From Acrocarpospora catenulata (lineage in GTDB: Bacteria > Actinomycetota > Actinomycetes > Streptosporangiales > Streptosporangiaceae): a stretch of 64,000 nucleotides of DNA. The notes below the pieces were generated by a model, which worked only from the letters and a program-made list of their open reading frames with translations, did no database searches and had not been told where the DNA came from. The position numbers were made by a program, and so were the translations under genes. Where the stretch lies: contig NZ_JAHCST010000024.1 of the NCBI RefSeq assembly GCF_018476525.1, forward strand, positions 1 through 64,000, read 5' to 3'. This document shows positions 2,316 to 46,700 of the stretch, in pieces (the first letter of the stretch is position 1; each line of letters begins with the position of its first letter).

Positions 2316-2349
2316 GGAACAACAGCACAGACCCAGCCTGATTTGCGGA

Positions 2350-2384
2350 GAGCCGGATGCGTCGACGAGGCGCACGTCCGGTTC
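2350..2384 (+). other. Group II intron domain V
   Basis: This 35-nt hairpin folds as GAGCCGG/CCGGTTC, then an internal bulge, then TGCGTC/GGCGCA around a GNRA-like loop. The catalytic AGC triad is at 2351-2353. Domain VI follows to 2447. An intact domain V next to an intact RT argues that the intron is still active. Confidence 0.9.
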
Positions 2385-2447
2385 GGGAAGCGGGCCGGGG
2401 AAACCCGCCGGTGGAAACACCTGCACGGCGCTCCGGCCCGACTTCAC

Positions 2448-3292: not shown

Positions 3293-3366
3293 TGCGCCGC
3301 CAGGGACTCGAACCCCGGACCCGCTGATTAAGAGTCAGCTGCTCTAACCGACTGAGCTAGCGGCGC
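3293..3366 (-). tRNA. tRNA-Lys (anticodon CTT)
   Basis: The minus strand gives a complete cloverleaf. The acceptor stem is GCGCCGC/GCGGCGC, the D arm contains AGCTCAGTCGGTTAGAGC, the anticodon loop CTCTTAA reads CTT, and the T arm has GGTTCGAGTCC. The discriminator base is A and CCA is not encoded. It decodes AAG. Confidence 0.97.
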
Positions 3367-23138: not shown

Positions 23139-23149
23139 CGTGCGGTTGG

Positions 23150-23893
23150 TCAGAGGAATGCGGTGGCGACAGGTACCGCACTGAACAAAGCCACCAGCGC
23201 CAAGGCGCAGGAATCGCGTCTGGTCCACCGGGAGCGCTGCCAGTGGCCTCGGGCGACGCCACGAGCTTCCCAGGCGAGCATCCCGCGCACCTCGATCGCG
23301 ACGGCGAGGTCGGTGGCGCTCCGCAGGGCGATGGTGAGGAAGACGACGCAGCGTCCGGCCAGTTCTCGTACCCGGCCGGCAACACCGGTACCGCCCAGCC
23401 CCCGTGACCGCCGTACGTGACCGATCTCGGTCCAGGTCTCGGTGAGCAGTGCGGTGCGCTGGAGCGCCATGACGATCGTCAGCACGGGGCGGGGCGGGAG
23501 TCGCAGTTGCTGGATCAACGCGTCGCCGAGCTCGAAGGGGCGCACGTGTGCCGAAAGGAGGAGACCCGGCATCGCCACGCAGAAGACCCTGGCGGCGGCG
23601 ACCGCTGAGGCAACCTCATCCTGGCCGCCGAAGTACCAGTTGTTCCAGAAGATCGTGAGGATCAGGTAGCCGGCCAGGACGAGTCGCGGCAGCATCGATC
23701 GCCGGGGGCTGCGGAGCAGCGGGAGCAGGGCGAGGAGCAGGAGGACGCTCACCGTGGCCGAGGCGGGCGTCGTTATCGCGAGGCTCGTGAGGGCGGGCAG
23801 CAGGATCCCCACGACGAGGACGAGCGGGTTGACCTGGCCGAGGGGTGGCCGGTGGCGCTCCGCGGTGCCCTGGAAGTCGAAGCCTGCGGTCAT
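23150..23893 (-). CDS. ECF transporter T component, YkoC-like (247 aa)
   Basis: Membrane coupling subunit. Hydrophobic segments in the N-terminal half (PLVLVVGILLPALTSLAI, ATVSVLLLLALLPLL) are followed by the cytoplasmic coupling helices that hold the ATPases (TEIGHVRRSRGL and the ARG-type motif IEVRGMLAWEARG). The start overlaps the stop of the ATPase gene (ATGA). The gene order S, fused ATPase, T is that of ykoEDC. Confidence 0.9.
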   Translation of the reverse strand: MTAGFDFQGTAERHRPPLGQVNPLVLVVGILLPALTSLAITTPASATVSVLLLLALLPLLRSPRRSMLPRLVLAGYLILTIFWNNWYFGGQDEVASAVAAARVFCVAMPGLLLSAHVRPFELGDALIQQLRLPPRPVLTIVMALQRTALLTETWTEIGHVRRSRGLGGTGVAGRVRELAGRCVVFLTIALRSATDLAVAIEVRGMLAWEARGVARGHWQRSRWTRRDSCALALVALFSAVPVATAFL

Positions 23894-25374
23894 GAGATGT
23901 CCTCCGGGGTGGTGCCGGCGGGTGCGAGCCGGGTGACGGCGTCGAGCTGCTCGACCAGGCGCCGATCATGCGTGGCCGCGAGCACCGCGCTGCCGCACGA
24001 GACGGCATGGCGTAGGGCACCGGCGACGGTGGCCCAGGATGCCCGGTCCTGGCCCACGGTCGGTTCGTCGAGTGCGAGGACCGGTGTCTCGGCGACCAGC
24101 GCGGCGGCGACCGCGAGACGGCGCTGCTCGCCACCGGAGAGGGTCTGCGGGTGGCGGCTGCCTGCGCTTCCGAGCCCGACCGAGTCCAGCAATGCCACCG
24201 CCCGTGCCTCGTCTCCGTCGCGCAGCCGGCCGATCAGCCTCCGGGTCTTGAGCAACTCGTCGATGACGGTCGATGCGATGAACCCTTGCGATGGAACCTG
24301 ACCGACGAGCGCGACCGTTTGTGCCAGGCGGCGGGAGTTCCAGCGGTGCGGTGGCCGGCGGGTCCCGGCCTGGACCCAGTCGGCCAGTCGTAGCGCCCCG
24401 GTCGTCGGCGGGTACCACCCCGCGACCAGCCTGAGCAGGGTGGACTTCCCGGAGCCGCTCGGCCCGATGAGCGCGTGGCCGCGCCCCAGTTCGAGCCGAA
24501 TGGAGACCTGAGGGAGGCGCAGGCTGTCACGGTCTCGATACGAGACCTCGTCCGCGACGAGGATCTCCTCGCCTGGGACAGCCCGTGGCCTGGGCGCCGC
24601 TGTCCAGTCGATCTCGGTTGTGGGTGGCGGGGGGAGACCGGGTAGCCAGAGCTCTTCCTGGCCGGCGAGAGCTGTGAGTACGCCTCCCGGTGTTCCGTCG
24701 TATCTGACGCGGCCGTGCTCGAGGACGACGACGCGGTCGACGTGGGGCCACCAGGTTTCGAGGTCGTGATCGGCCACGACGAGGCTTGCGCCGAGCGTGT
24801 CGACGAGGCTCAGCACGGCACTCTGTACCGCGCGGGCGGCGGCCGGGTCGAGCATCGAGAGCGGCTCGTCGAGCAGGAGTACCTCGGGAGACAGGCCGAG
24901 AAGGCCGGCGAGTGCGAGGCGTTGGCCCTGCCCGCCGGAGACATGCGTGGAGCGCCGGTCGAGCGGGAGCCCGCCGAGTCCGACCGATGCGAGGTTGCCT
25001 CGGACGAGTGCGTGGAGCGGGTCGCCGCTCAGTCCGATGTTCTCCGCGGCGAACGCGGCGTCGCGTGCGACGCTGCCGGCCACGACCTGATCGCGCGGAT
25101 TCTGCAGGAGGAGTCCCGCGCCGCCATGCCTCTCGGCCGGCGACTGGCCGCCGATCAGCACCTTCCCGCTGAGATCACCGGGCGCGTAGTTCTCCAGGGC
25201 CCCGGCGATGGCTCGCAGCAGAGTGGACTTGCCCGAGCCGCTGGCACCGGTGAGCAGCACGCGCTCACCCGGTTCGATGACGAGATCGACGGCGTCCAGG
25301 ACAGGCGACGCACCCCAAGGGGTCCACGTGAGGGAACGCACTCGGACCCCTTGGGGATGGAGCAGCGTGGTCAC
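23890..25374 (-). CDS. ECF transporter fused double ATPase, YkoD-like (494 aa)
   Basis: Two ABC cassettes in one chain. The first has Walker A GASGSGKST (43-51), signature VSGGQ (145-149) and Walker B LLLDEP. The second has Walker A GPSGSGKST (304-312), LSGGEQRR and LALDEPTVGQD. It powers uptake by the S/T membrane subunits. The GTG at 25374 overlaps the S-component stop (GTGA), and its own stop overlaps the T-component start, so the three subunits are translationally coupled. Confidence 0.92.
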   Translation of the reverse strand: MTTLLHPQGVRVRSLTWTPWGASPVLDAVDLVIEPGERVLLTGASGSGKSTLLRAIAGALENYAPGDLSGKVLIGGQSPAERHGGAGLLLQNPRDQVVAGSVARDAAFAAENIGLSGDPLHALVRGNLASVGLGGLPLDRRSTHVSGGQGQRLALAGLLGLSPEVLLLDEPLSMLDPAAARAVQSAVLSLVDTLGASLVVADHDLETWWPHVDRVVVLEHGRVRYDGTPGGVLTALAGQEELWLPGLPPPPTTEIDWTAAPRPRAVPGEEILVADEVSYRDRDSLRLPQVSIRLELGRGHALIGPSGSGKSTLLRLVAGWYPPTTGALRLADWVQAGTRRPPHRWNSRRLAQTVALVGQVPSQGFIASTVIDELLKTRRLIGRLRDGDEARAVALLDSVGLGSAGSRHPQTLSGGEQRRLAVAAALVAETPVLALDEPTVGQDRASWATVAGALRHAVSCGSAVLAATHDRRLVEQLDAVTRLAPAGTTPEDIS

Positions 25375-25994
25375 TGGGCAGGCGCCGCTGCCGCGACCTG
25401 GCTGACCTCGCGGGCGATCGGGAAGGCGTTGAGCACCCCGGCGCGCGCCAGAGCCCGGGTGATGACCCACCCGAGGCCCGCGCCGATCACGGCTGCCGAG
25501 ATGATGCCGCCGACGCCATTTGCGATCTTCCACCCCAGACTCCAGGTGGGGTGGTACAGGTTGACGCCCCAGAAGGACTGGAGGAAGGCGCCGAACGCGA
25601 TGCCGAGGGCCAGCATGGGGAGGCCCCACCGCTTCCAGCGGAACGCGGCGAGTACGAGCTCGATGCCGACGCCGTAGAGCAGGCCGGAAACCAGGGCGAT
25701 CACTGCGAACTGGTTGCCGAGCAGCAGTTCCACGGCGGCGGCGAGGACCTCGGTGAGCAGGGCCGCTCCTGGCCGCCGCACGATGGCGGCGCCGACGACC
25801 GCGGCGATCGTCCAGACGCCTCCGATGAGGCTGATCGTGGGCGGGAAAGCGACGAAGAGGGGGAACGCGAGGCCGTAGAGGTGGTCCCATCCCCAGAAGA
25901 TGACGCCGAAGGCGACAGCGAGGACGGCCGTGACGACGAAGTCGACCGTGCGCCAGGCCCAAGGACTCCTGACTGCCAGTTCACTGGTGGACAC
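25371..25994 (-). CDS. ECF transporter S component, YkoE-like (207 aa)
   Basis: Substrate-binding membrane subunit with five to six hydrophobic helices (VVTAVLAVAFGVIFWGWDHLY, ISLIGGVWTIAAVVGAAIV, LPMLALGIAFGAFLQ, IISAAVIGAGLGWVITRAL). The opening resembles YkoE, the hydroxymethylpyrimidine/thiamine-type S component. The GTG at 25994 has AGGAG upstream. No TPP riboswitch is visible in the leader. Control instead seems to be by the divergent FadR-type regulator, whose operator lies between the two starts. This and the monooxygenase neighbours leave room for a different, perhaps sulfur-containing, substrate. Confidence 0.85.
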   Translation of the reverse strand: MSTSELAVRSPWAWRTVDFVVTAVLAVAFGVIFWGWDHLYGLAFPLFVAFPPTISLIGGVWTIAAVVGAAIVRRPGAALLTEVLAAAVELLLGNQFAVIALVSGLLYGVGIELVLAAFRWKRWGLPMLALGIAFGAFLQSFWGVNLYHPTWSLGWKIANGVGGIISAAVIGAGLGWVITRALARAGVLNAFPIAREVSQVAAAAPAQ

Positions 25995-26030
25995 GTGTTG
26001 TCTCCTATTTTGGTAGGGAATACAGCTTAT

Positions 26031-26060
26031 AGTACATACACCTGAGCGCGGCTGTATACT
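26031..26060. promoter_or_regulatory. FadR-type operator, copy 1 (ECF operon / regulator promoter)
   Basis: AGTACATACACCTG, 8 bp, then TGTATACT. The half-sites are an imperfect inverted repeat. The same pair with identical spacing (22 bp between half-site starts) recurs at 29597-29625. It lies between the divergent S-component (25994) and regulator (26101) genes. Confidence 0.7.
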
Positions 26061-26100
26061 TGAACTCTCACATTTCGGCACGAGGGGAGATGCGTACACA

Positions 26101-26754
26101 GTGGTCGAAGTCGATGGGCCGGGCGCTGCGACCAAGCCCTATGACCTCATCAAGCAGGGAATTCTCCGTGGCGACCACGTGCCCGGCGACGTACTGACGG
26201 AGGGCGGCCTCGCCGAGAGCTTCGGCATCTCGCGCACCCCGATCCGGGAGGCGTTCCTCCGGCTGGAGCAGGATGGCCTGCTCGAACGGACGTCGCGTGG
26301 CATGCGAGTGCCGTCCCGCACGCTCGAAGAGGTGACGAACGCGTACGAGGCCTGCATCATCCTCGAACCGGAGACGACACGGCTCGCGGCGCACCGCATC
26401 CTGCCGCACGAGCTTCTGCGGTTGCGTGACCTGCTGGAGGAGGGCGAGCGGTTCGTCGATGCCGGCCAGCCGCCGTTCGAGGTCTTCGACCGATGGCACG
26501 CGGCGGTGTGGGACTGTTCCCACAACGATGTCATCATCACGACTTTGGTGCGGCTCTCCGCCCTGCTGTCCGGACTGCCGTCGCGCTCCTCGGACCCTGA
26601 CCACTGGCGCGCCGCCGCCCGCATGCACCAGGAGATCACCGATCTCCTCGGCCGCCATGAAGCGGACGCGGCCGCGGACATGATGCGCACCCATCTCGTC
26701 GGAGCCCGGGACGCCGTCATCCGCCACCTCGTGCGCACAGGATCGGGCACGTGA
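26101..26754 (+). CDS. GntR/FadR family transcriptional regulator (217 aa)
   Basis: Winged helix-turn-helix (YDLIKQGILRGDHVPGDVLTE, LAESFGISRTPIREAFLRLEQDGLLE) followed by an FCD effector domain with the metal/ligand residues spread over ACIILEPETTRL, FDRWHAAVWDCSHN and ARMHQEITDLL. It starts at GTG 26101, and its stop overlaps the GTG of the flavin monooxygenase (GTGA), so the two are co-expressed. The repeated dyad at both divergent promoters of the cluster is its probable binding site. Confidence 0.9.
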   Translation: MVEVDGPGAATKPYDLIKQGILRGDHVPGDVLTEGGLAESFGISRTPIREAFLRLEQDGLLERTSRGMRVPSRTLEEVTNAYEACIILEPETTRLAAHRILPHELLRLRDLLEEGERFVDAGQPPFEVFDRWHAAVWDCSHNDVIITTLVRLSALLSGLPSRSSDPDHWRAAARMHQEITDLLGRHEADAAADMMRTHLVGARDAVIRHLVRTGSGT

Positions 26755-28160
26755 GCGATCGGCTGCGCCTGTTCGCGCTGAAGCAGGCCACCCCAGGGCA
26801 CACCGGAATAGGACTGTGGCGTAATCCGCGCAGCCAGGCCCATCGCTACGGCGACCTGGACTACGCCATCGAGCTCGCACGTCAGCTGGAGGACGGCGGA
26901 TTCGACGGGGTCTTCTTCGCCGACGCTCCCGGTGTGCTCGACGTGTACCAGGGGCGGGTGGACCCGGCCCTGCGAGACGGACTTGGCACGCCTGCCGCGG
27001 ACCCGATCCCGATCGTCGCCGCGATGGCGGCCGTGACGACCCGGCTGGACCTCGCCGTGACGATGTCCACGAGCTACGTCCAGCCCTACGCGCTGGCTCG
27101 CACCATGGGGACCCTCGATCGCCTCAGCGGAGGGCGCATCGGCTGGAATATCGTCACCTCGGCGCTCGACTCCGGCGCCCGGAACCTCGGCCTGGGAGCG
27201 CTGCCGGCGCACGACGTGCGCTACGACATCGCTGAGGAGTTCATGGAAGCGGTGTACGGCGTGTGGGAGTCGAGCTGGGACGAGGACGCAGTGGTGCGCG
27301 ACACCCACAGCGGGGTGTACGTCGATCCGGCACGGGTCCGCCCGGTCGCCCATGCCGGCCGTGCCTTCCGCATTCCCGACGTCGGCCCGGTCGAGCCGTC
27401 GCCGCAACGCACCCCTGTGCTCTTCCAGGCCGGGAGCTCCGAACGGGGGCTACGGTTCGCCGGTCGTCATGCCGAGGGGGTCTTCTTGAGCGCGCACGAT
27501 CCGGCCCTCGTGGCTCGGCAGGTGCAGCGTGGGCGGAAAGCCCTCACCGAAGCCGGACGATCCCCGACCGATGCCGTGTTCCTGGCCAACGCGACGTTCG
27601 TCGTCGCGCCCACCGACGCGGAGGCCGCCCGGACCTATCGCGAGGAGTATCTCGCCTATGCCAGCCACGAAGGCGCGCTCGCCCGGTACAGCGCGCTCCT
27701 CGGTATCGACCTGAGCCAGCTCGACCCGGACGAGCCGCTCAAGGCCGAGGCCGCCAACGGCGGAGTGCCGGCGATTCAGGGGATCGTCGACGTCTTTACC
27801 CGACTGGATCCGGAATGCGTGTGGACACCCCGTGCCATCGGCGAGTTCGTCGCCATCGGGGGTGGGGGTCCGGTGATCGTCGGATCTCCGGGGACGGTAG
27901 CCGACCGGATCGAGGAGTGGACTCACCTCGCGGGTGTCGACGGATTCAACGTCGCTGATCCCCTCCCGGGTGTGACGCTGACCGCCGTCTGTGCGCACTT
28001 GATCCCGGAGCTTCGTCGACGCGGACTGGTGAGCACCCCGGACCCCGGGTTCGGCACCTTCCGGGAGCGGTTGTCAGGTCGCCGCGGGGCCCGTCTCCGG
28101 GCCCCGCACCCAGCCGCGGTCGCGCGCGGGGCTCACCCGATGGCGTCGTCGTCCGGGTAG
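26751..28160 (+). CDS. LLM-class flavin-dependent monooxygenase, NtaA/SnaA/DszA family, copy A (469 aa)
   Basis: TIM-barrel FMN-dependent monooxygenase: FALKQATPGHTGIGLWRNP at the N-terminus, GGFDGVFFADAPGVLDVYQG, SGGRIGWNIVTSALDSGARN, RYDIAEEFMEAVYGVWESSW, SPQRTPVLFQAGSSERGLRFAGRHAEGVFLS. These are the hallmark blocks of the NtaA/SnaA/DszA(SoxA) group, which oxidises nitrilotriacetate, sulfones or similar small molecules with FMNH2 from a separate reductase. It is coupled to the upstream regulator. It ends inside the convergent paralogue (28-bp overlap). No flavin reductase gene is nearby. Confidence 0.9.
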   Translation: MSDRLRLFALKQATPGHTGIGLWRNPRSQAHRYGDLDYAIELARQLEDGGFDGVFFADAPGVLDVYQGRVDPALRDGLGTPAADPIPIVAAMAAVTTRLDLAVTMSTSYVQPYALARTMGTLDRLSGGRIGWNIVTSALDSGARNLGLGALPAHDVRYDIAEEFMEAVYGVWESSWDEDAVVRDTHSGVYVDPARVRPVAHAGRAFRIPDVGPVEPSPQRTPVLFQAGSSERGLRFAGRHAEGVFLSAHDPALVARQVQRGRKALTEAGRSPTDAVFLANATFVVAPTDAEAARTYREEYLAYASHEGALARYSALLGIDLSQLDPDEPLKAEAANGGVPAIQGIVDVFTRLDPECVWTPRAIGEFVAIGGGGPVIVGSPGTVADRIEEWTHLAGVDGFNVADPLPGVTLTAVCAHLIPELRRRGLVSTPDPGFGTFRERLSGRRGARLRAPHPAAVARGAHPMASSSG

Positions 28161-29527
28161 CGGTGCCGCGCGGCAGGATGGTCGTCGCGCACTCGTGCCA
28201 TGCCGCCCCCGAAGATCCGTTCTCGTAGGGTCAGACCCGTCTTTCCCGAGGCCGGATCGGGGCGGCGGCCTCGAGCGACGAGCTCGGGCATCACCAGTTC
28301 GCCGAACTCGCGGAAGGACTGCCCCGGGATGATGTCGACGAGATTGAACCCGTCGATTCCGGCCTGCTCGCACCACCGTTCGAGCTCGTCGGCCACCTGC
28401 GCAGGGGAGCCGACGACGAAGGGTCCGAATCCTGCCAGCGCCATGTACTCGGCGACCTGTCGTGGCGTCCAGCGGCGGGAGGGATCGAGCTTGGTGAAGT
28501 TGGCCAGCACGCTCTGGATGCCCGGCGTTTCCGCGAATTCGAGCGGCTCGTCGAGATCGACCGCACCGAAGTCGACCTGAATCGTGCTCGCCAGTCGCGC
28601 GAGGTTGCCCTCGACGCTGGTCAGTCGCAGGTATTCCTCGTGCTTGGCCTGGGCCTCCCGCTCGGTCTCGCCCGTCACCACCGTGAGTGTCGAGATGAAA
28701 CGGAGACTGCCGGGATCGCGTCCGGCCTCGGCGGCCTGCGCACGGATGTCGTCGACGGTTCGCCGCAGCACATCGGGCCGCTGGGCGCTCACGAACACGA
28801 CTTCGGCGTGGCGCGCGGAGAATCGTTTCCCGCGCGCGGAGCTGCCGGCCTGGAAGATCAGCGGGGTGCGTTGCGGCGAGGGTTCGGCCAGGTGGATCCC
28901 GGTGACGTCGAAGTACCGGCCGTGGTGCTCGATTGGACGGACTCTGCGCGGCTCGACGTAGACACCACTCGCCACGTCGGCGATCACGGCGTCGTCAGCC
29001 CAGCTTCCCTCCCAGAGCCGGTAGACGACCTCCATGAACTCCTCGGCGATGTCGTAACGCTCGTCATGGCTCACGGCTGGATCAATCCCGAGCCCTGCCA
29101 TCGCGCTGGGCACAAGTCCTGTCACCACGTTCCAGCCGATGCGTCCGTCGGTGAAATGGTCGAGGGTGCTCAACCGGCGCGCGAGCTCATAGGGCCGGTT
29201 GAACGACGTATTCAAGGTGAGGCCGAATCCCAGGCGCTCGGTCACCGCGGCCATGGCGGAGATGGCGAGACTCGGATCGGCTGAGGGCGTCTGCAGCCCC
29301 TCACGCAGCGCCTGATCCGGCGAGTTCTGGTAGACGTCGGCGGCGCCGAGCGAATCGGCGATGAACAACGCGTCGAAGTCGAAGCGCTCGAGTGTGCGAG
29401 CGGTCTCGATCCAGAAGTCCAGCTCACGGTAACGGCGGGCTCGACTGTCTGGATGCCGCCACAGGCCCGCGCTCGTGTGCGTGACCATCGCGGCCTTGAA
29501 GCCGTTGACGAGGATCGGTCGGGTCAT
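28133..29527 (-). CDS. LLM-class flavin-dependent monooxygenase, NtaA/SnaA/DszA family, copy B (464 aa)
   Basis: Paralogue of the preceding gene, on the opposite strand: MVTHTSAGLWRHPDSRARR, FDFDALFIADSLGAADVYQ, DGRIGWNVVTGLVPSAMAG, SPQRTPLIFQAGSSARGKRFSARHAEVVFVSAQ. The two differ clearly along their length, so they are not a recent duplication and probably act on different intermediates. The ATG at 29527 faces the rhodanese gene across a promoter region containing the shared FadR-type operator. The last 28 bp overlap the end of copy A. Confidence 0.9.
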   Translation of the reverse strand: MTRPILVNGFKAAMVTHTSAGLWRHPDSRARRYRELDFWIETARTLERFDFDALFIADSLGAADVYQNSPDQALREGLQTPSADPSLAISAMAAVTERLGFGLTLNTSFNRPYELARRLSTLDHFTDGRIGWNVVTGLVPSAMAGLGIDPAVSHDERYDIAEEFMEVVYRLWEGSWADDAVIADVASGVYVEPRRVRPIEHHGRYFDVTGIHLAEPSPQRTPLIFQAGSSARGKRFSARHAEVVFVSAQRPDVLRRTVDDIRAQAAEAGRDPGSLRFISTLTVVTGETEREAQAKHEEYLRLTSVEGNLARLASTIQVDFGAVDLDEPLEFAETPGIQSVLANFTKLDPSRRWTPRQVAEYMALAGFGPFVVGSPAQVADELERWCEQAGIDGFNLVDIIPGQSFREFGELVMPELVARGRRPDPASGKTGLTLRERIFGGGMARVRDDHPAARHRYPDDDAIG

Positions 29528-29596
29528 GCGTTCTCCGAGTACTCAACGAAGCTGACCCAGCGACAGTCGCCGGGCCAGCGTGTACGACTGCCATCA

Positions 29597-29625
29597 AGTA
29601 CATACACTTGGCACTTCATGTATAT
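29597..29625. promoter_or_regulatory. FadR-type operator, copy 2 (monooxygenase B / rhodanese promoter)
   Basis: AGTACATACACTTG, 8 bp, then TGTATAT. It matches the site at 26031-26060 in 13 of 14 bases of the first half-site and has the same spacing. It lies in the 184-bp divergent promoter. Confidence 0.7.
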
Positions 29626-29711
29626 CCTTTAGGTCAACAGAGTACAGGAATGGACGCCTACGGATCGGTGGACGTCCGTGTCCGCGTCCGATCGATGAGA
29701 AAGGCACTCCG

Positions 29712-30584
29712 ATGGCCCGATATCCACAGCTCATCAGTGGCGAGGGACTGCTTGCCGTACTCGACGACCCCGACCTCGTGATCGCGGACGTCCGGGTACG
29801 TTACGTCGACGATGTCGCGCGGCCCGATCACGATCGGTATCTGGCAGGGCACGTTCCGGGCGCGGTGTTCGCCGACTTGCCGGGTGACTTCTCCGTCACC
29901 GCCGACGATGGACGTCAGTTCGGGCTGCCCGGCGCCGGCTCCTTCGCCGCCGCGGCGGGCGCACTCGGAGTCGGGCCTGGCCGGCACCTCGTCGTGTACT
30001 CCGAGGGCTGGCAGATCTGGGCGACCCGACTGTGGTGGCTGTTCCGCTACTACGGGTTCGACGACGTGAGCGTGCTAGACGGCGGCTTCCAAGGGTGGCT
30101 GGCCGACGGCCATCCGGTCGCCACCGGCCCCGAGAAGCCGCAGGAGCATGTTTTCGAGCCCCGCGAGCGCACCGAGCTTGTGGCTGATCACACAGAAGTC
30201 GAGCAGATCAGCCGTTCAGTGCGTGCCGGTCAGCTCGTGCACGCCCTACCCCGGGAGTTCTACGTCGGCGAGGTCGCCACGCACGGAAGCGTGTACGGCC
30301 GAATCCCCAACAGCGTCAACCTCCCGTGGCCGACGACCGCGGACGTCGACACCGGCCGCTACGTTCCTCGTGACGAGATCCGTCAAGCGGCGCAAGCGCA
30401 CCTGCTCCCCGAGGGGGAGGGAGATGTCGTGGCCTACTGCGGTGCGGGCGTCTCAGCCACCGGCCTCATCTTCGGGCTCTCGCTCATCGGCCGCGATGAC
30501 GTCAGGCTGTACGACGGCTCTCTCAACGAGTGGTCGCGAGCACTCGGCAAGCCAGTGGAGCGCGGGGAGCCACGGTCCGATTGA
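29712..30584 (+). CDS. Sulfurtransferase, two rhodanese domains (290 aa)
   Basis: Thiosulfate/3-mercaptopyruvate sulfurtransferase type. The N-terminal rhodanese-like domain (VIADVRVRYVDDV, GHVPGAVFADL, DVSVLDGGFQGW) is catalytically inactive, with Ser at the active-site loop (YSEGWQIWA). The C-terminal domain carries the cysteine in YCGAGVSATGLIFGL. The ATG at 29712 follows AAAGG. It transfers sulfane sulfur to cyanide or another acceptor. Next to two sulfone/sulfonate-type monooxygenases it suggests handling of sulfur released from an imported compound. Confidence 0.9.
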   Translation: MARYPQLISGEGLLAVLDDPDLVIADVRVRYVDDVARPDHDRYLAGHVPGAVFADLPGDFSVTADDGRQFGLPGAGSFAAAAGALGVGPGRHLVVYSEGWQIWATRLWWLFRYYGFDDVSVLDGGFQGWLADGHPVATGPEKPQEHVFEPRERTELVADHTEVEQISRSVRAGQLVHALPREFYVGEVATHGSVYGRIPNSVNLPWPTTADVDTGRYVPRDEIRQAAQAHLLPEGEGDVVAYCGAGVSATGLIFGLSLIGRDDVRLYDGSLNEWSRALGKPVERGEPRSD

Positions 30585-30587
30585 GCG

Positions 30588-30619
30588 GGGATGCCTGGCC
30601 GCTCAGGACCAGGCATCCC
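30588..30619. terminator. Bidirectional hairpin between convergent genes
   Basis: GGGATGCCTGG (30588-30598) and CCAGGCATCCC (30609-30619) form a perfect 11-bp stem with a 10-nt loop, in the gap between the convergent rhodanese and CHAP genes. It has no T-run, as is common for actinobacterial hairpin terminators. Confidence 0.7.
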
Positions 30620-30651
30620 GTCGGACATGATCTGGGCCGGCAGGATGCCGT

Positions 30652-31872
30652 TCAGGCCCGGTGCGCGCCCCGGGGGCGGGTGTAGCGGTAGGCGGCGGCG
30701 GCTCCGGCCACGAAGAGCAGCAGCAGGGCCAGCACCACGGAGACCGGCACTAGTGGCTGGGGGACGGTGGAGGCGGTGTTGCGCAGGCTCGGCGTGGCCA
30801 CGGCCTCGGACACCGCGTCGGACAGCGCCACCAATGGCGCCTCGGGTGCCACGGTGGAGGTGCCCGAGGCCTTCGCCGGGGTGATGGCGCAGATCTGGGC
30901 CACCTTGCCGGGTTCGGCGGTGGGGAACTTCAGGGTGGGCGGGGCGGGGGCGGACTTGTCGTTGACGGAGTAGGCGCCGGTGGAGAAGGGCAGGGGGGCG
31001 CCCTTCTTGCCGAGTCCCGCACCCCATTTGGTGATGACGTAGTCGACCTTGATGTGGCCCGCGCCGCCGTTGCCGGTCACGGTCAGGTTGCCGTGGTTCC
31101 AGGTGCCGCCGGTGAGCTCGGCGAAGGTCTTGCCGTCCAGGTCGAGCATGACGCCGCTGCTGGAGGGGGTGCCCGGGCCGCGGTCGCCGACGAAGAAGGG
31201 GGCCTTCTTGCCGTTGTGGACGACGTAGCCCTCGGTGCCCATCGGCCAGCTGGGGCTGGCGGCCAGGCCCTTCTGCATGGGTTTGCCGGAGGCGGGGTGG
31301 CCGGTGTCGCCGTTGCGCCCGGAGCCGTCGTCCCAGAAGTAGGACGCCGTGGTGGTGCCCTTGTAGAGGGGGAGTTGGACCATGCGCGGCAGGCCGTAGC
31401 CGGTGAAGGCGGATTCCGGGCGGGTCACCCGCTGCACCGCGCCGTGCAGGGCCTCGATGGTGGTGACACGCCCGCCGGTGGCCTGCTCCACGATGCCGAC
31501 CTGGCCGTCCTTCTTGAGGAAGGCGACGGCGCCGCGCTCGGCGCTGCCGGACCAGGCGTGCTGGGCCTTGAACCAGGCCTGGTGGTCGGGGGTGTGGGCG
31601 AACTTGCCGACCGAGGTGGTGAGACCGGCCTGCTGACCGGCCCACGAGACGAAACTGTCGCACCAGGGGGCCTTGGCCAGGCTCGGGGAGGTGTCGGTGG
31701 CGGTGGCGTACCAGGCGCCGTACTTGCTCTTCTGTCCGTGATCAGCGCTGTAGCCCAGCTCCTGCCGGGCCGCGTTGAGCAGCTTGTCCGCAATGCTGGA
31801 AATGGGGGATCTCCTGGGGATAGGGGATGGGTCACGGTTTAGTAACCGGACATTAAGCCACTTTCCGCTCAC
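30652..31872 (-). CDS. CHAP domain protein with C-terminal membrane anchor
   Basis: The N-terminal CHAP amidase/peptidase domain has the catalytic Cys in APWCDSFVSWAGQQAGL and the His in GQVGIVEQ/FAHTPDHQAW. A Gly/Ser-rich middle and a C-terminal hydrophobic segment (PVSVVLALLLLFVAGAAAA) with a basic tail follow. No signal peptide is seen, odd for a cell-wall hydrolase. The start is uncertain. The GTG at 31872 gives 23 extra residues without a good ribosome-binding site. AGGAG at 31811-31815 lies 7 nt before an in-frame ATT at 31803, so an ATT start is possible. An inverted repeat (CGGTT-TAGT-AACCG, 31835-31848) sits upstream. Confidence 0.75.
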   Translation of the reverse strand: MSGKWLNVRLLNRDPSPIPRRSPISSIADKLLNAARQELGYSADHGQKSKYGAWYATATDTSPSLAKAPWCDSFVSWAGQQAGLTTSVGKFAHTPDHQAWFKAQHAWSGSAERGAVAFLKKDGQVGIVEQATGGRVTTIEALHGAVQRVTRPESAFTGYGLPRMVQLPLYKGTTTASYFWDDGSGRNGDTGHPASGKPMQKGLAASPSWPMGTEGYVVHNGKKAPFFVGDRGPGTPSSSGVMLDLDGKTFAELTGGTWNHGNLTVTGNGGAGHIKVDYVITKWGAGLGKKGAPLPFSTGAYSVNDKSAPAPPTLKFPTAEPGKVAQICAITPAKASGTSTVAPEAPLVALSDAVSEAVATPSLRNTASTVPQPLVPVSVVLALLLLFVAGAAAAYRYTRPRGAHRA

Positions 31873-40489: not shown

Positions 40490-43400
40490 TCACGGCGACC
40501 GGCGTTCGGCCACTACGGCGGCGATGCCGTTCACGCTCGGGGTGTCGAAGAAGGCGTAGAACGGTACCTCCACCTCCAGGCGGTCCCGGATTCTGGCCGC
40601 GATCTGGGCGATGGTCAGGGAGTGGCCGCCCAGGTCGAAGAGGCTCTCGTCGGGGTCGATGTTGTCCAGGCCGAACACCTCGGCCCAGATCTCGGCCAGC
40701 ACCGCCCGCGCGGAGCCGTCGGTCGTGGGACCGGTGGGTTCCGGGAGTTCGGGGCGGGGCAGGGCGGCTCGGTCGAGCTTGCCGTTGGGGGTCAGTGGCA
40801 GGGCCGGCAGGTCCACGAAGATCGAGGGCACCATGTACGCGGGCAGGGTGCGGGCGAGATGGCGGCGGAGCTCGGGCGACCCGCTCGTCGTGTACGCCAC
40901 AAGTTGATCGTCCCAGACCGCCACTGCGGCCTCCTTGGCGTGGGCGAGCAGGCAGGACTCGATCTCCCCCAGCTCGATGCGGTGCCCGCGCAGCTTGATC
41001 TGGTCGTCGGTGCGGCCGAGGAACTCCAGTTCCGCGCCGCGCAGGCGGACCCGGTCGCCGGTCCGGTACATGCGGCTTCCGGCAGGGCCGTACGGGTTGG
41101 GCGAGAAGCGGGTGGCGGTCAGGGCCTGGCGGTTGAGGTAGCCCCGGGCGACCCCGGCGCCCGCGATGTACAGCTCGCCGGGCACCCCTTCCGGGACCGG
41201 ATCGAGGCTGTCGTCCAGAACAAGTAGCTGGGTGTTGGCCAGCGGTCCGCCGATGGTAATCCGCTCCAGGGCGGGCGGGATCTCGGCGATGGTCGACCAG
41301 ATCGTGGTCTCCGTTGGGCCGTACACGTTGAAGAGCCGCCCGACCCTCGGGCGCAGCCACTCGGCCAGCGGCAGCGGCAGTGCCTCGCCCCCCGCCAGCG
41401 CGGTCCCGCCGAACGAGAACCCGGCCTCCAGCAGCAACCGCCACGTGGACGGGGTGGCCTGAAGATGGGTGACCCCGTGCCTGGCAACCAGCCGCGCCAG
41501 CGCGTCCCCGTCCGCCGCCTCGGCCTCCCCCACGACGATCACCCGGCCACCGGTGACCAGCGGCAACCACAACTCCAGCCCGGAAATGTCGAACGACAGG
41601 GAGGTCACCGCCAGCCAGACGTCCGCCTCCCCGGCGTCCAGCCGGTCCCGCATGGCCAGGATCAGATTGCTCAGCGCACCGTGGTCGATCTCGACGCCCT
41701 TGGGCCGCCCGGTGGATCCCGAGGTGTAGATCACGTACGCCCGGTCGCGAGGCCCGGCCCTACCGTCGATCCGGGCCTCGGCGCCAGACCTGGCCTCACC
41801 GCCGATCGAACCCTCGACGCCAGACCCGGTCTCACGGTCGATCGAGGCCCAGGTGCCCGGATCAGTTCCGCCACCGATCGGGAGCCCGGCGTCGGGGTCG
41901 GTGAGTGGGATGCACGGCAGGCCTGTGACGGGGGTGCCCTGGTCGGTCAGCAGTAGGCGGGCGGTGGAGTCGGCGGCGATGTAGGACAAGCGGTCGGCGG
42001 GGTAGGCCGGGTCCAGCGGCAAGTGGGCGGCTTGCGCTTTCCAGCAGGCCAGGACACCGGCGACCATGCGTTCTGAGCGTTCGGCGGAGAGCGCGACCAA
42101 GTCGCCGGGGCGGACTCCGGCGTCGGTGAGCCGGGCGGCGAGACGGTCGGCCAGGGCGTTCAGTTCGGCGTAGGTCAGGTGGGTGTCGCCGCTGGTGACG
42201 GCGATAGCGTCCGGGGTGCGGGCTGCCTGGGCTTGGAACAGATCGGGGACGGTGACCGCCGGGTAGGGGGTGTCGTCCCGGAGTTGCGGGAGCGTCTCGA
42301 TCGGCAGGTCTCGCAGGGGCGTATCCGGATATTTCGTGACGTGGTGGAGGATCGCCAGCCAGTGATCGGCAATGCGTTCCACGTCGGCACGGGCGATCGA
42401 GGCGGGCGGGAACTGGAACATCACGCCCAACCCGTCGGGGCCGTCCACGAGGTGGACGCGAAGGGCGTTCCTGGCCGTGTGGTTGAAGATCACCCAATCA
42501 ACCGAGGTCTCCAGGCCGGGAAACTCGGGTGGAGCCATACGGCGGCGGTAGGTGAGAGAGATCGGGGCGAGCGAAACCCCCGGCCGCAGGCCGCTCACCG
42601 CCCGTCCCAACGGCACCTCGCGAACCTGGTACAGCTCCCGCAACCCGGCCCGGACCTGCCGGGCGAAATCGGCGAAACCTATGGCCGGGGACGGGGTGGA
42701 GGCGAACGGCAGTTCGTTGACGTACACACCGATCCACCCGGCCGCCTCGGGCGGGCGCACTCCCAGGTCCAGGGCGGTGACCGGCCGTTCGTTGCCGTAC
42801 CGCCGGAGCAGCGCGTGCACCGAGGCGACCACCACCTCGAACCGGGTCACCCCAAGGCGCTCGGCGGCGTCCCCCAGCACCGCCCCGGGCAGCCGGAACT
42901 CCACCGCCTCCCCGACCTGCACCTCCTGCTCCAACCGATTCAAGCCAGGCAAAACCACCTCGCCCGGCTCAAACCACCGCTCCGCCCAGTACGCCCGGGC
43001 GGCCGGCAGCCTCTCCCCCACCCTGGCTTCCTCGACCTCGGGCGCCTCCACCGGTCCGAGCGGCGCCAACCCCGGCTCCCCGCCCTCAACCTCCGCCCGG
43101 TAGAAGGCCGCGAGATCCTCGACGAACACGTCCGTGGACTGACCGTCGAAGACCAGGTGGTGAGCGACCACCAACAACCGCCCGTCCCCGAACAGACTGA
43201 ACCGGGCCAGCGGCCCCGCAGCCAAGTCGAACGGCCGCCGAACCTCCTGGCGCGAATCGGACGCAGACTCGGGAAAGGCAACGGGCGCCCCCGGGGCCGG
43301 GCCAAACAGCCGCGGAACATCCTGGGGTGAATCGGACTCGGGAAAGGCGACGGGCGACCCCGCAGCCGGGCCGAACGGCCGCCGAACCTCCTGGTGTGGA

Positions 43401-43651
43401 TCGGTCGTGGGTTCGGAGAGCGGGATGGGCGGGCCTTCGGTCAGGTGGGGAAGGCCGTCCGCTATCTGGATGGCGGTGCGGAGGATGGGGTGGCGGGCGA
43501 CCAGGCGGGCGCAGGCCCTGCGTAGCGCCGGGACGTCCAGGGGGCCCGTGAATCGCAGGCCGAACGGCATGTGGTGGGTTGTCCCGGCGGTGCCGAGTTG
43601 CTCGTTGAACCAGATGCCACTCTGCGGGATCGAGATCCGAACGCATGCCAT
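40490..43651 (-). CDS. Nonribosomal peptide synthetase, C-A-T module (1053 aa)
   Basis: Condensation domain with HHLVFDG (164-170), adenylation domain (YVIYTSGSTGRPKGVEI, NVYGPTETTIWST, GELYIAGAGVARGYLN, YRTGDRVRLR, PNGKLDRAALP) and a carrier domain with DLGGHSLT. No thioesterase or epimerase. The A-domain pocket reads about D-I-L-(Q/A)-L-G-V-I-W, close to the glycine-type code. Residues 86-147 of the C domain are three imperfect copies of an EVRRPFGPAAGSPVAFPES-like unit. A second Gly/Asp/Arg-rich insertion precedes the A-domain core. It is divergent from the A-T-C gene. Confidence 0.92.
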   Translation of the reverse strand: MACVRISIPQSGIWFNEQLGTAGTTHHMPFGLRFTGPLDVPALRRACARLVARHPILRTAIQIADGLPHLTEGPPIPLSEPTTDPHQEVRRPFGPAAGSPVAFPESDSPQDVPRLFGPAPGAPVAFPESASDSRQEVRRPFDLAAGPLARFSLFGDGRLLVVAHHLVFDGQSTDVFVEDLAAFYRAEVEGGEPGLAPLGPVEAPEVEEARVGERLPAARAYWAERWFEPGEVVLPGLNRLEQEVQVGEAVEFRLPGAVLGDAAERLGVTRFEVVVASVHALLRRYGNERPVTALDLGVRPPEAAGWIGVYVNELPFASTPSPAIGFADFARQVRAGLRELYQVREVPLGRAVSGLRPGVSLAPISLTYRRRMAPPEFPGLETSVDWVIFNHTARNALRVHLVDGPDGLGVMFQFPPASIARADVERIADHWLAILHHVTKYPDTPLRDLPIETLPQLRDDTPYPAVTVPDLFQAQAARTPDAIAVTSGDTHLTYAELNALADRLAARLTDAGVRPGDLVALSAERSERMVAGVLACWKAQAAHLPLDPAYPADRLSYIAADSTARLLLTDQGTPVTGLPCIPLTDPDAGLPIGGGTDPGTWASIDRETGSGVEGSIGGEARSGAEARIDGRAGPRDRAYVIYTSGSTGRPKGVEIDHGALSNLILAMRDRLDAGEADVWLAVTSLSFDISGLELWLPLVTGGRVIVVGEAEAADGDALARLVARHGVTHLQATPSTWRLLLEAGFSFGGTALAGGEALPLPLAEWLRPRVGRLFNVYGPTETTIWSTIAEIPPALERITIGGPLANTQLLVLDDSLDPVPEGVPGELYIAGAGVARGYLNRQALTATRFSPNPYGPAGSRMYRTGDRVRLRGAELEFLGRTDDQIKLRGHRIELGEIESCLLAHAKEAAVAVWDDQLVAYTTSGSPELRRHLARTLPAYMVPSIFVDLPALPLTPNGKLDRAALPRPELPEPTGPTTDGSARAVLAEIWAEVFGLDNIDPDESLFDLGGHSLTIAQIAARIRDRLEVEVPFYAFFDTPSVNGIAAVVAERRSP
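43215..43410 (-). repeat. In-frame tandem duplication inside the NRPS C domain
   Basis: About three imperfect copies of a 63-72-bp unit. The copies encode EVRRPFGPAAGSPVAFPES, DVPRLFGPAPGAPVAFPES and EVRRPFDLAAGPLARF. Only the last is the normal C-domain segment. The others are insertions. Confidence 0.8.
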
Positions 43652-43781
43652 TGAACCGTCCCAACGATCGCCTGTTTCGTGAGTATGCCTAGAAATTGCA
43701 GCGATTTGCTAGATACTTGTGGTGATTCGTTCAGAATGGTTTACTCCGATCGATCATTCGCGGCTGCGGAAGAGGCAGGCC

Positions 43782-46700
43782 ATGACCGTCACCCTCCCCG
43801 GGCTGCTCCAGGCGAGAGCACGCGAGCAACCCGCACGACCGGCTCTGATCTGCGACAACGGCACCAGCCTGAGCTTCGCGGAGTGGGACGCGGGGGCCGA
43901 CGCGACCGCGCGGGACCTGCTCGCGCGCGGGCTCGCCACCGGCGACCGGGTCGGCCTGCTCTTCGGTAACGACCGCTGGCCCGACTACGCGGTGACCTTC
44001 CTGGGCGTACTCCGCGCGGGCGGGGTCGCCGTACCCCTCCCGGCCCGCCAGTCGGAAGCCACCCGGCAACTGATGGCGGAGGACTGCGGAGCCCGCTGGA
44101 TCCTCGACGAACCGATCGGTCCCGGCCCAGCCACCAGCCGGCCAAACCCACTCTTGAACCTGACCTCCGACCGGCCCTGGCGGCTAACCCCACCATCGAG
44201 CCCCGTTGAAGCCGGTGGCGAGACCGGTGCCGCCCAGGTCTCAGAGCGCTCCTGGCGGCCAACCCCACCATCGAGCCTCGTTGAAGCACCGGACTCGTCC
44301 GTGAGCTTCGCCGAACCTGTCATCGATCCGGACGGGCTCGCGCAGATTCTCTACACGTCGGGGACGACCGGACGGCCGAAAGGGGTGGCCGCCAGCCACG
44401 CCAACCTGGCTTACGGGCATCGGCCGCATCCCGCGTACCGGATGTTGTCGCACTCCGAGCACTTCCTGCACGCGTTTCCGATTGGGACCAACGCGGGGCA
44501 GATGATGCTGGTCAATGCGTTGGTGGCGCATCCGTGCGCGTTGGTGATGGCGGCGTTCGACGCCGAGCGGTGCTGCGCGCTCATCGAGGAGCATCGGGTG
44601 GGGACCGTTTTCGTGGTGCCATCGATGGCGGCGAACCTGCTCGATTCGGGGGTCTGGCGGCGGCACGATCTGTCGTCGGTGCTGCTGCTCAGTTCCTCGG
44701 CGGACGCGTTGCCTCCGCGCGTGGCCGCCGCGCTGCCGGAGGCGTTTCCCAAGGCCACGATCGTGAACTACTACACCTCCACGGAGGCCGTGCCCGCCCA
44801 GACCACCATGATCGTCAATCCCGCGCGTCCGCACTCGGTCGGGCGGGCCACCGAGGCCGGGGGTCTGCTGATCACGGATGAGGACGGCTCGCCGGTCGCG
44901 CCCGGTGAGGTCGGCGAGGTGTGGTTGCGGGCGCCCGCCGCCCAGCGCGCCTACTACGGTGACGCCCAGGCCGACGCCCAGGCCAGCGCGCGGGTGTTCC
45001 GGCGCGGCTGGACCCGGATGGGTGACCTCGGCTACCTGGACCGCGACGGCTACCTCTACCTGGTCGGCCGCGACTCCGACGTGATCAAGTCCGGCGGCCT
45101 CAAGATCTCCACGCTCCAGATCGAAACCGCCCTCGCCGAACACCCGTCCGTCGCCGACGCCGCCGTGCTGGGCGTGCCCCACCCCGTCATGGGCTCGATG
45201 GTCGCGGCGGCCATCGTCCCGCGCCGGGATCGCCCGCCGTCCATCGACGAACTCCGTGTCTTCCTGTCGGAACGCGTCGCCCGCAACGAGGTCCCCACCC
45301 GGTACGCCTTCGTGGACCAACTCCCCCGCAACGAACTGGGCAAGGTAGTCAAAGGGGAACTCCGCGACCTGTTCACGACCGCTCGCCGAGAGGCCGGGGC
45401 CGCACTGGAGACCGCAGAGCAGCAGTCCCTGGCCCGGCTGTGGAGCGCCGTACTCGGGGTGCCGGTGAACAGCAGGGACGACGATTTCTTCGCACTGGGC
45501 GGCGACTCGCTCAAAGCCAGCCAGCTGGCCACCCGCGCCGGGGAGGAGTTCGGTGTCGAACTCCCGGGAACCCTGGCCTTCGACCATCCCATCCTGGAAC
45601 GCCAGGCCACCGAACTCCACAACGCAACGGCCCGACATTTCACGAAAAATCCGGATGTGGTGGAGCCGGGGTTGCTTGGTGGGGTCCAGGAGCATTGGTG
45701 GCGGTGGATGCACGCCACGCCGGAGACCCGGCACATGCCCCCGGTCCATGTCGCCGTACACGTCGAGACCGGGCTCGACGCCGACCTGCTGACCAGGTGC
45801 CTGACCGAGCTGGTGAACCGCCACGAAGCCCTGCGCACGGTCTTCCACGACGGCCGCGCCGTCATCCACCCCACCGGCGAGATCCGGCTCAGCGTCCACG
45901 AGGCGCCCAACCGGGACGAGGCAGGCGCACTGGCCGCCGACCTCGTCCGCACCCCCTTCGACATCACCCGGGGGCCGCTACTCCGCGCCGCTCTGATCCG
46001 CCTGCTTCCCGGCGGCAGAGACGAGGCAGCGGAGCGCGCCGCCGGTGCGGGCCTTTACCGGGATTGCGGCCCCACCGGCGGCGCGGGGGGCGCTGGAAGC
46101 CCCGGGAGCGTAGGCCCAGCGAGGCAATCGGGAAGCCCGAACGCAGGGAGCACGGGAGTTCCACCGGCGATCCTCGTGCTGGCCGCTCATCACATGGTCT
46201 TCGACGGGTGGTCGGCGGGGGTGCTGCTGCGGGAGCTCGGCGTCCTCTACTCCGCGTTCGGCCACGGCGCGCCTTCGCCGCTGCGCCCGGCCACCCAGTA
46301 CGCCGACTTCGTCGCCTTCGAGCGCCGGGAATGGTCCCGTACCCGATCCCATTGGACGGCCACCCTCGCGGACGCGCCTCAAGTGCTCCCCCACTTCCCG
46401 GGCCGCGCCCCCGACGTACGCCTCTGCGCCGCGGAATCCCACGAGTTCGAGGTTCCCGGCGACGCCGTAGGGAAGAGAGCGAGGGCCACAGGCTCCACAA
46501 CGGCAATGGTGTTGGCGGCGGCCTGGGCGCAGACCCTGGGGGAATGGTCAGGGTCACCGGAGGTGGTGCTGGCCAGTCCCGTCACCGGACGTACCCGCCC
46601 GGAGTTCGAGAGCACGATCGGCTGCCTGTTCCGGTGGAACCTGCTCCGGGTCAGGACGGACGGGGACGTGCTGGCCCAGGTCCGGAACGCCACTCTGACC

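What the first reader, a model, noticed from the sequence alone, without database searches (positions are those of the whole stretch)
23150..30584. Possible new import-and-desulfurisation system: ECF transporter, two flavin monooxygenases, rhodanese, FadR regulator
A YkoEDC-like importer is usually assigned to thiamine precursors, but no TPP riboswitch is visible. Instead the importer shares an operator with two NtaA/SnaA/DszA-type monooxygenases and a rhodanese, enzymes that fit oxidative release and transfer of sulfur. The cluster may take up and open a sulfur- or nitrogen-containing ring (for example thiazole-like) and recover sulfur. I know of no described pathway with this set.
Basis: inference. 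Interest (0 to 1): 0.7.

Follow-up and report, generated by a model that had tools for sequence, protein, structure and literature searches.

The report
Predicted vitamin-B1-type import and desulfurisation cluster
An actinobacterium carries a set of seven genes that probably imports a vitamin B1-like molecule and breaks it open with oxygen to use its parts, perhaps its sulfur; our literature searches turned up no gene set described for this.

Summary
The seven genes are real, lie exactly at 23150-30584, and fill a slot that holds other DNA in 4 of 4 congeners examined. They encode a YkoE-type ECF importer, an FCD/GntR regulator, two NtaA/DmoA-family flavin monooxygenases (LLM1, LLM2) and a 3-mercaptopyruvate-sulfurtransferase-like rhodanese. 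A bipartite operator lies in both divergent gaps; nothing else in the genome matches its 14-bp core with fewer than 2 mismatches.

Comparison gave more. LLM1, LLM2 and 8 relatives form one supported clade. All 9 loci in it lie beside a thiamine-type importer: YkoE-type ECF in 2, an unrelated ThiY-type ABC importer in 7. Rhodanese is in 8 of 9. None of 8 LLM loci examined outside the clade has either. TPP riboswitches precede the importer in 24 of 25 ordinary YkoE loci scanned, in none of these 9. Two thiamine-contact positions of the S component (37/38 Q, 38/38 D/E elsewhere) are Y and G in the window and in Gulosibacter.

Best reading: import and oxidative opening of a thiamine-related vitamer, with sulfur passed to the rhodanese (about 0.5). 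No ligand or reaction was measured.

The parts
23150..23893 (-). EcfT transmembrane subunit
   Evidence: Homologous stretch after the ATPase gene in 17 of 20 YkoE loci searched (27-42% identity; the three without a hit end at or near a contig end) and 52% to Gulosibacter L002; no Pfam hit. ATGA overlap with the ATPase gene (sequence).
23890..25374 (-). Fused two-domain ECF ATPase (EcfAA'/YkoD-like)
   Evidence: Two ABC_tran stretches; best NCBIfam models are ECF ATPases, below their cut-offs; 51% to Gulosibacter.
25371..25994 (-). YkoE-type S component with altered thiamine pocket (W49, E77 kept; Q95->Y, D/E131->G)
   Evidence: PF09819; 5edl E 2.7e-24; pocket comparison; 72% to Gulosibacter.
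26031..26058 (.). Operator copy 1, AGTACATACAC-N11-TGTATA, between the S component gene and gntR
26101..26754 (+). GntR-family regulator with FCD domain
   Evidence: PF07729 68.6 bits, PF00392 55.2 bits; 41-43% to the GntR of L072 and L074.
26751..28160 (+). LLM1: NtaA/DmoA-family FMN-dependent monooxygenase, clade-mate of the ThiY-importer-linked LLMs
   Evidence: TIGR03860 443.2 bits, cut-off 279.7; tree 98/97. GTGA overlap with gntR (sequence).
28133..29527 (-). LLM2: NtaA/DmoA-family FMN-dependent monooxygenase, sister of the Gulosibacter ECF-linked LLM
   Evidence: TIGR03860 494.4 bits; tree 100/100 with L002.
29597..29624 (.). Operator copy 2, between LLM2 and the rhodanese gene
   Evidence: Its second half reads TGTATAT, not TGTATAC.
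29712..30584 (+). Two-domain rhodanese, 3-mercaptopyruvate-sulfurtransferase-like, active loop CGAGVS
   Evidence: PF00581, 2 stretches; best PDB match 1urh, a 3-mercaptopyruvate sulfurtransferase, E 9.1e-34; loop.

Best explanation
A GntR-controlled catabolic unit for a thiamine-related compound. Inferred order: (1) the YkoE-type ECF importer captures a thiamine-like vitamer, probably not thiamine itself, because two pocket positions that are otherwise almost invariant are changed; (2) the two FMNH2-dependent monooxygenases, fed by a flavin reductase encoded elsewhere, oxidise it and open or cut off the thiazole part; (3) the sulfur is released as a mercapto compound. An alpha-mercaptoketone is the expected product of thiazolium opening (chemistry recalled), and 3-mercaptopyruvate is also an alpha-mercaptoketone, so the MST-like rhodanese could take the sulfur and hand it on; (4) the FCD regulator releases the operators when a small acidic intermediate appears. 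Shown: genes, operators, importer and enzyme classes, conserved neighbourhoods, pocket changes, insertion. Inferred: the ligand and steps 1 to 4.
For: Two unrelated importer families, each related to a protein solved with thiamine or named for a thiamine pyrimidine, sit beside one enzyme clade. S component: YkoE 5edl, solved with thiamine (passages of PMC5037267). Sister importers: the L070 binding protein is 46.6% identical to 4nmy (139 of 298 positions), listed as 'with thiamin-bound' in PMC10586155 (passage), and also matches the formylaminopyrimidine-binding protein 3ix1, E 4.1e-34; the L072 protein matches 4nmy at 5.7e-39 and 3ix1 at 2e-27. Homologs of the L072 protein in L107 (52%) and L109 (48%) sit beside genes with a TENA_THI-4 domain (below NCBIfam's thiaminase II cut-off), the L109 set with a TPP riboswitch upstream, the L107 set without one. 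The monooxygenases of the 9 loci form one clade, 99/97, without DmoA, LadA, HcbA1, RcaE or DszA. None of the 8 LLM loci outside the clade that were searched has a homolog of the S component, EcfT, ThiY-type binding proteins or permeases, rhodanese, PPOX or GntR at E 1e-4. Rhodanese in 8 of 9 loci with loop YCGxG[IV]S; L108 joins a rhodanese to a related importer (63%) without an LLM hit. Catabolic rather than vitamin control: no TPP riboswitch in the window, in L067-L070, L072, L074 and L102, nor upstream of the L002 LLM-ECF operon, against 24 of 25 ordinary YkoE loci scanned. GntR homologs in 3 of 7 sister loci, with TGTATAC in the gntR-importer gap of all three and of the window. A flavin reductase gene beside the LLM in L068 fits a two-component monooxygenase.
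Against: No ligand or product was measured. The altered pocket (Q95Y, D/E131G) could mean a ligand that is not thiamine-like. 3ix1 is named for a sulfur-free pyrimidine, so a thiamine-type importer does not prove that sulfur enters. The seven sister loci come from one family and four genera, so they are few independent cases; 4 of the 7 have no GntR homolog. Gulosibacter has the importer and one LLM but no rhodanese or GntR hit in the 18 kb held. The PPOX gene of the sister clusters, and any flavin reductase, are missing from the window's set. The nearest solved enzymes are named for dimethyl sulfide and alkanes. The rhodanese scores 152.3 bits against a cut-off of 250 for MST.
Confidence: 0.5

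Rival explanations
1. Vitamin salvage: the importer takes up a damaged thiamine vitamer and the monooxygenases trim it to a usable pyrimidine or thiazole; sulfur handling is a by-product.
For: Homologs of the L072 importer are paired with TenA-domain genes in L107 and L109, the latter with a TPP riboswitch upstream. The Gulosibacter LLM-ECF operon lies about 2 kb from a thiC gene with a TPP riboswitch.
Against: No TPP riboswitch upstream of the importer or enzymes at any of the 9 clade loci, against 24 of 25 ordinary YkoE loci scanned. FCD regulator and a rhodanese in the regulon. None of the seven proteins is a TenA or a thiamine kinase.
Confidence: 0.2
2. Non-thiamine organosulfur or hydrocarbon scavenging: the ECF importer was recruited and re-tuned for another sulfur compound, and the enzymes act like DmoA or DszA.
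For: Two otherwise near-invariant thiamine-contact positions changed; closest solved relatives are DmoA and LadA; of 6 plasmid homologs looked at, all outside the clade, 4 had annotation and 2 of these lie beside ssuD or sfnB-type sulfur genes; a MetNIQ-like set lies within about 1 kb of the LLM of the second cluster in this genome.
Against: The 7 sister clusters carry the same enzyme clade with a ThiY-type importer, so thiamine-type import recurs in two unrelated families.
Confidence: 0.22
3. Detoxification of thiamine antimetabolites that enter through thiamine-type importers.
For: Thiamin antivitamins such as bacimethrin and methoxythiamin occur in nature (start of the abstract of PMC12345177 as printed in the search listing).
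Against: A dedicated importer in the same regulon would bring the poison in; the rhodanese has no evident role.
Confidence: 0.05

Closest known systems
YkoEDC thiamine ECF importer (B. subtilis; group I ECF)
   Same: S component family, fused ATPase plus T subunit, W49 and E77 of the pocket.
   Different: Q95 and D131 replaced, no TPP riboswitch, a GntR gene and operators instead, linked to monooxygenases and rhodanese.
ThiXYZ-TenA pyrimidine salvage
   Same: The sister clusters use importers related to ThiY and to importers that sit beside TenA-domain genes.
   Different: Monooxygenase and rhodanese in place of TenA; no TPP riboswitch. In the window the ABC importer is itself replaced by an ECF importer.
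DmoA dimethyl sulfide monooxygenase and LadA alkane monooxygenase (TIGR03860)
   Same: Same subfamily, 42-47% and 39-44% identity; reduced-flavin-dependent C-S or C-H oxidation (recalled).
   Different: Outside the clade of the window's enzymes (99/97).
RcaE riboflavin catabolism of Microbacterium maritypicum
   Same: An LLM monooxygenase that opens a vitamin's breakdown, in a soil actinobacterium (passages of PMC12746152).
   Different: 38-39% identity, outside the clade; a different vitamin; no rhodanese, as far as recalled.
Dsz and Cmo (YtnJ) organosulfur pathways
   Same: LLM monooxygenases that cut C-S bonds to free sulfur (recalled).
   Different: DszA 36% identity; no N-acetyltransferase or Dsz partners among the seven genes.

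Membership tests
YkoEDC thiamine importer | PF09819 S component with dedicated fused ATPase and EcfT | tested here: met
   EcfT by homology and position only.
YkoEDC thiamine importer | Thiamine-contact residues W49, E77, Q95, D131 (Y46 variable) | tested here: not met
   W and E kept; Q95 is Y, D/E131 is G. Of 38 others, B. subtilis YkoE included, 37 have Q and 1 E at 95, and 38 have D or E at 131. E77 itself is E in 12 and S in 26 of the 38.
YkoEDC thiamine importer | TPP riboswitch control | tested here: not met
   24 of 25 ordinary loci scanned have it.
YkoEDC thiamine importer | Binds thiamine at nanomolar affinity | not testable with these tools
   Needs protein; YkoE Kd about 4.5 nM (passage of PMC5037267).
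NtaA/DmoA FMN monooxygenases (TIGR03860) | Score above the curated cut-off | tested here: met
   443.2 and 494.4 bits against 279.7.
DmoA, LadA or RcaE proper | Groups with the characterised enzyme rather than apart | tested here: not met
   Window enzymes in a separate 99/97 clade; RcaE and DszA have long branches there.
3-mercaptopyruvate sulfurtransferase (NF008557) | Score above the curated cut-off | tested here: not met
   152.3 bits against 250.
3-mercaptopyruvate sulfurtransferase (NF008557) | Catalytic Cys with uncharged loop (C-G-x-G, recalled for MST) | tested here: met
   CGAGVS in the window; CGGG[IV]S in 8 of 8 relatives.
FCD-type GntR regulators | GntR helix-turn-helix plus FCD domain | tested here: met
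ThiXYZ-TenA salvage | TenA plus ThiY-type importer under TPP control | tested here: not met
   The window's set has none of the three; sister clusters have the importer and no TPP riboswitch.

The most novel reading that the evidence does not exclude
The cluster and its ThiY-linked sisters are gene sets for bacterial vitamin B1 breakdown with sulfur recovery. In the window the S component has been re-tuned from thiamine to an oxidised thiamine such as thiamine acetic acid: loss of the acidic residue at the thiazole end would admit a carboxylate, which would also suit an FCD regulator. The LLM clade opens the thiazole and the rhodanese takes the sulfur from the resulting mercaptoketone.
Probability: 0.25. 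Interest if true: 0.8.

Novelty: new variant of a known kind. Interest (0 to 1): 0.62.

Why it matters
[quoted passage not shown] A defined gene set with a dedicated importer, regulator and operators would make bacterial breakdown of vitamin B1 directly testable, and would suggest that a thiamine importer can be re-tuned through a few pocket residues. It also gives a marker, this LLM clade, for finding more such loci.

Tried and rejected
Looked for more ECF-linked relatives: 1 hit in the genome-contig scan (Gulosibacter sp. 10). A search of 394 class genomes found 117 with an S component, all at 47% identity or less besides the window. A search of 398 genomes of another family found one hit at 100% to the Gulosibacter query, on a contig of the same length as L002's, so taken to be that genome, and five at 47-51%. 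0 of 4 congeners have it; no plasmid record has it.

Considered and set aside: an ordinary thiamine or HMP importer (pocket, no riboswitch); NTA or EDTA degradation (those enzymes score lower than DmoA); riboflavin catabolism (RcaE outside the clade). Structure prediction was not run: the allowed alignment would have held two sequences, and coordinates are not returned. Paper searches for thiamine catabolism genes gave nothing relevant.

Choices and gaps behind the counts: the 25 ordinary YkoE loci are 20 chosen mostly from the top of the 117 genomes, plus the 5; the other matches were not scanned for riboswitches. The pocket comparison holds 37 homologs plus YkoE; the weakest matches were not aligned. 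L061, the Gulosibacter locus again, was left out of the riboswitch control; L043, the one miss, is counted. The loci of L062-L066 were not searched for neighbouring LLM genes (wider stretches of three of them, L076-L078, were fetched but not searched). The 8 LLM loci outside the clade are 2 of the 9 found picked from the 50 plasmid rows listed. In one search the Gulosibacter LLM was translated in a wrong frame and its comparisons there are void; they were redone. Total G+C does not mark the insert: 0.687 against 0.694 for the window and 0.675 for everything to its left; only third codon positions do.
Full report
Observation. Pfam and NCBIfam give PF09819 for the S component, a two-domain ECF-type ATPase, GntR plus FCD, two TIGR03860 monooxygenases well above the cut-off, and a two-domain rhodanese. 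EcfT has no Pfam hit and is named from its place and its homologs. Start and stop codons overlap by four bases between S and ATPase genes, ATPase and EcfT genes, and gntR and LLM1 (sequence). AGTACATACAC occurs twice in the window against 0.07 expected, each time 11 bp before TGTATA. In the whole genome only these two sites match the 14-base core with fewer than two mismatches; 27 others have two, which is chance level by the reversed control. The two operators lie between divergent genes, so every gene of the set is downstream of one of them. That the GntR protein binds them is inference.

A discrete insert. Third-codon-position G+C is 0.80-0.89 in the seven genes and 0.92-0.96 in the four flanking genes measured; total G+C is not unusual. 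In 4 of 4 congeners the secA-type gene and the gene at 30652-31872 flank an interval of 1.7 to 5.0 kb in which none of the seven genes was detected, and 0 of 4 congeners have the S component anywhere. The nearest S component found is in Gulosibacter sp. 10, another family, at 72% identity, in the gene order LLM-S-ATPase-T on one strand. Horizontal gain is the simplest reading.

The importer. The S component is a YkoE relative. PMC5037267 (passages read) reports that in YkoE Trp49 stacks on the thiamine pyrimidine, Glu77 and Gln95 hold it, and Asp131 and Tyr46 hold the thiazole; W49A gave no quenching, Q95A the largest loss among the other alanine changes, and Q95W abolished binding. Across 38 other sequences, B. 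subtilis YkoE included, position 95 is Q in 37 and E in 1, position 131 is D or E in 38, and position 49 is W in 38; the window and Gulosibacter have Y, G and W. Positions 46 and 77 are not discriminating: they vary among the others (18 of 38 Y; 12 of 38 E). Of 25 ordinary YkoE loci scanned, 24 have a TPP riboswitch just upstream of the S gene (L043 is the miss). The window has none. Gulosibacter has one, but on a neighbouring thiC gene on the other strand, not upstream of the LLM-ECF operon. In 20 ordinary loci searched, none showed an LLM, rhodanese or GntR homolog in the stretch (three of the stretches are short or end at a contig end).

The sister clusters. The LLM relatives were chosen by LLM similarity alone: 8 loci from 297 family genomes (LLM2, E up to 1e-150) and one more, L102, from 341 (LLM1, E up to 1e-140). 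Seven of these nine (L067, L068, L069, L070, L072, L074, L102; four genera) have close together an SseA-like rhodanese (36-48% to the window's), a PPOX-type protein, and an ABC importer with two binding-protein genes. The other two, L071 and L073, have none of these. L070 lies in the window's own genome (contig C46). The main binding protein of L070 is 46.6% identical over 298 positions to PDB 4nmy, which PMC10586155 lists as 'Substrate-binding protein of ABC transporter with thiamin-bound' (passage); that of L072 matches 4nmy and 3ix1, the N-formyl-4-amino-5-aminomethyl-2-methylpyrimidine binding protein. The binding proteins of L067-L069 are 87-94% identical to L070's, those of L074 and L102 76-86% to L072's. 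TIGR01728 (SsuA) is matched far below its cut-off. Homologs of the L072 protein lie beside TenA-domain genes in L107 and L109, the second with a TPP riboswitch upstream. In L108 such an importer lies with a kinase-like gene and an SseA-like rhodanese, without an LLM hit. L072, L074 and L102 have a divergent GntR gene; those of L072 and L074 are 41-43% identical to the window's and that of L102 is 78% to L072's; the other four show none. TGTATAC is found in the gap before it in all three and in the window's first gap, each with a frequency of 0.5-1.3% in shuffled gaps; the second operator of the window has TGTATAT.

The enzyme clade. In a tree of 23 sequences LLM2 pairs with Gulosibacter's LLM (100/100), LLM1 joins the seven sister LLMs (98/97), and these ten form one clade (99/97) apart from DmoA, LadA, HcbA1, RcaE and DszA. 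All 9 loci of the clade have a thiamine-type importer, of two unrelated kinds. Of 8 LLM loci outside it, 2 from the same searches and 6 picked from plasmid hits, none has a homolog of the S component, EcfT, the ThiY-type binding proteins or permeases, rhodanese, PPOX or GntR. The loci are related by descent, so these are not 17 independent trials. LLM1's long end branch (1.02) makes its exact place within the clade less sure, and RcaE and DszA are on long branches that meet.

Mechanism. That two unrelated importer families, each with thiamine-related members of known structure, accompany one enzyme clade is the main reason to think that the substrate is thiamine-like. That both altered pocket positions contact the ligand suggests a derivative rather than thiamine. 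The rhodanese loop is of the uncharged CGxG type, like MST as recalled; MST acts on an alpha-mercaptoketone, and opening of a thiazolium ring gives one (recalled chemistry). FCD regulators usually respond to small acids (recalled). The steps themselves are inference. FMNH2 must come from elsewhere: none of the seven proteins is a flavin reductase, whereas L068 has one beside its LLM.

Against. Nothing was measured. 3ix1 is named for a sulfur-free pyrimidine, so import does not prove sulfur entry. Gulosibacter shows no rhodanese or GntR near its operon. The nearest solved enzymes are named for dimethyl sulfide and alkanes, and 2 of 4 annotated plasmid homologs outside the clade lie beside sulfur-acquisition genes. 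A salvage role is possible; the absence of TPP control at all nine loci speaks against it.

Literature. What I saw: passages of PMC5037267, PMC10586155, PMC12746152 and PMC8557817 (nothing relevant), and search listings only for the rest. Searches for thiamine catabolism genes, thiamine dehydrogenase, and ECF or YkoE with LLM or rhodanese found no description of this set; the library lacks most subscription journals. Older enzymology of thiamine-degrading bacteria (thiamine acetic acid) is recalled, not read.

Verdict. A real, discrete unit with shared operators; the class of substrate is narrowed to thiamine-like with moderate confidence; sulfur recovery is plausible and unproven. Parts are of known families; the combination, and its recurrence with two importer types, looks new.

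Noticed in passing
L070 (own genome, contig C46:67000-85000): A second cluster in the same genome: ThiY-type ABC importer, SseA-like rhodanese, PPOX protein and LLM, with a MetNIQ-like importer about 1 kb from the LLM.
   Followed up: partly
L002 13100-16764: In Gulosibacter a GMC oxidoreductase gene follows thiC closely, in one direction, with a TPP riboswitch at the thiC start, convergent to the LLM-ECF operon; it could be an alcohol oxidase acting on thiamine (inference).
   Followed up: partly
L108 5451-9552: ThiY-type importer with a P-loop kinase-like gene and an SseA-like rhodanese but no LLM hit: another arrangement of the same parts.
   Followed up: partly
window 23139-30651 and L114-L117: The gap between the secA-type gene and the gene at 30652-31872 varies in length among five genomes of the genus (1.7 to 7.5 kb), like a slot for exchangeable cargo; what the other four hold was not annotated.
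   Followed up: partly
window 2348-2447 and 3293-3366: Rfam matches to a group II intron (45.2 bits, threshold 40) and a tRNA close together.
   Followed up: no
window 40490-47012: Two divergent nonribosomal peptide synthetase genes (condensation, AMP-binding and carrier domains).
   Followed up: no
L094 546-3304: Tsukamurella plasmid with an ABC ATPase and a gene annotated EcfT about 5 kb from an LLM of another clade; no YkoE-type S component detected near by.
   Followed up: no
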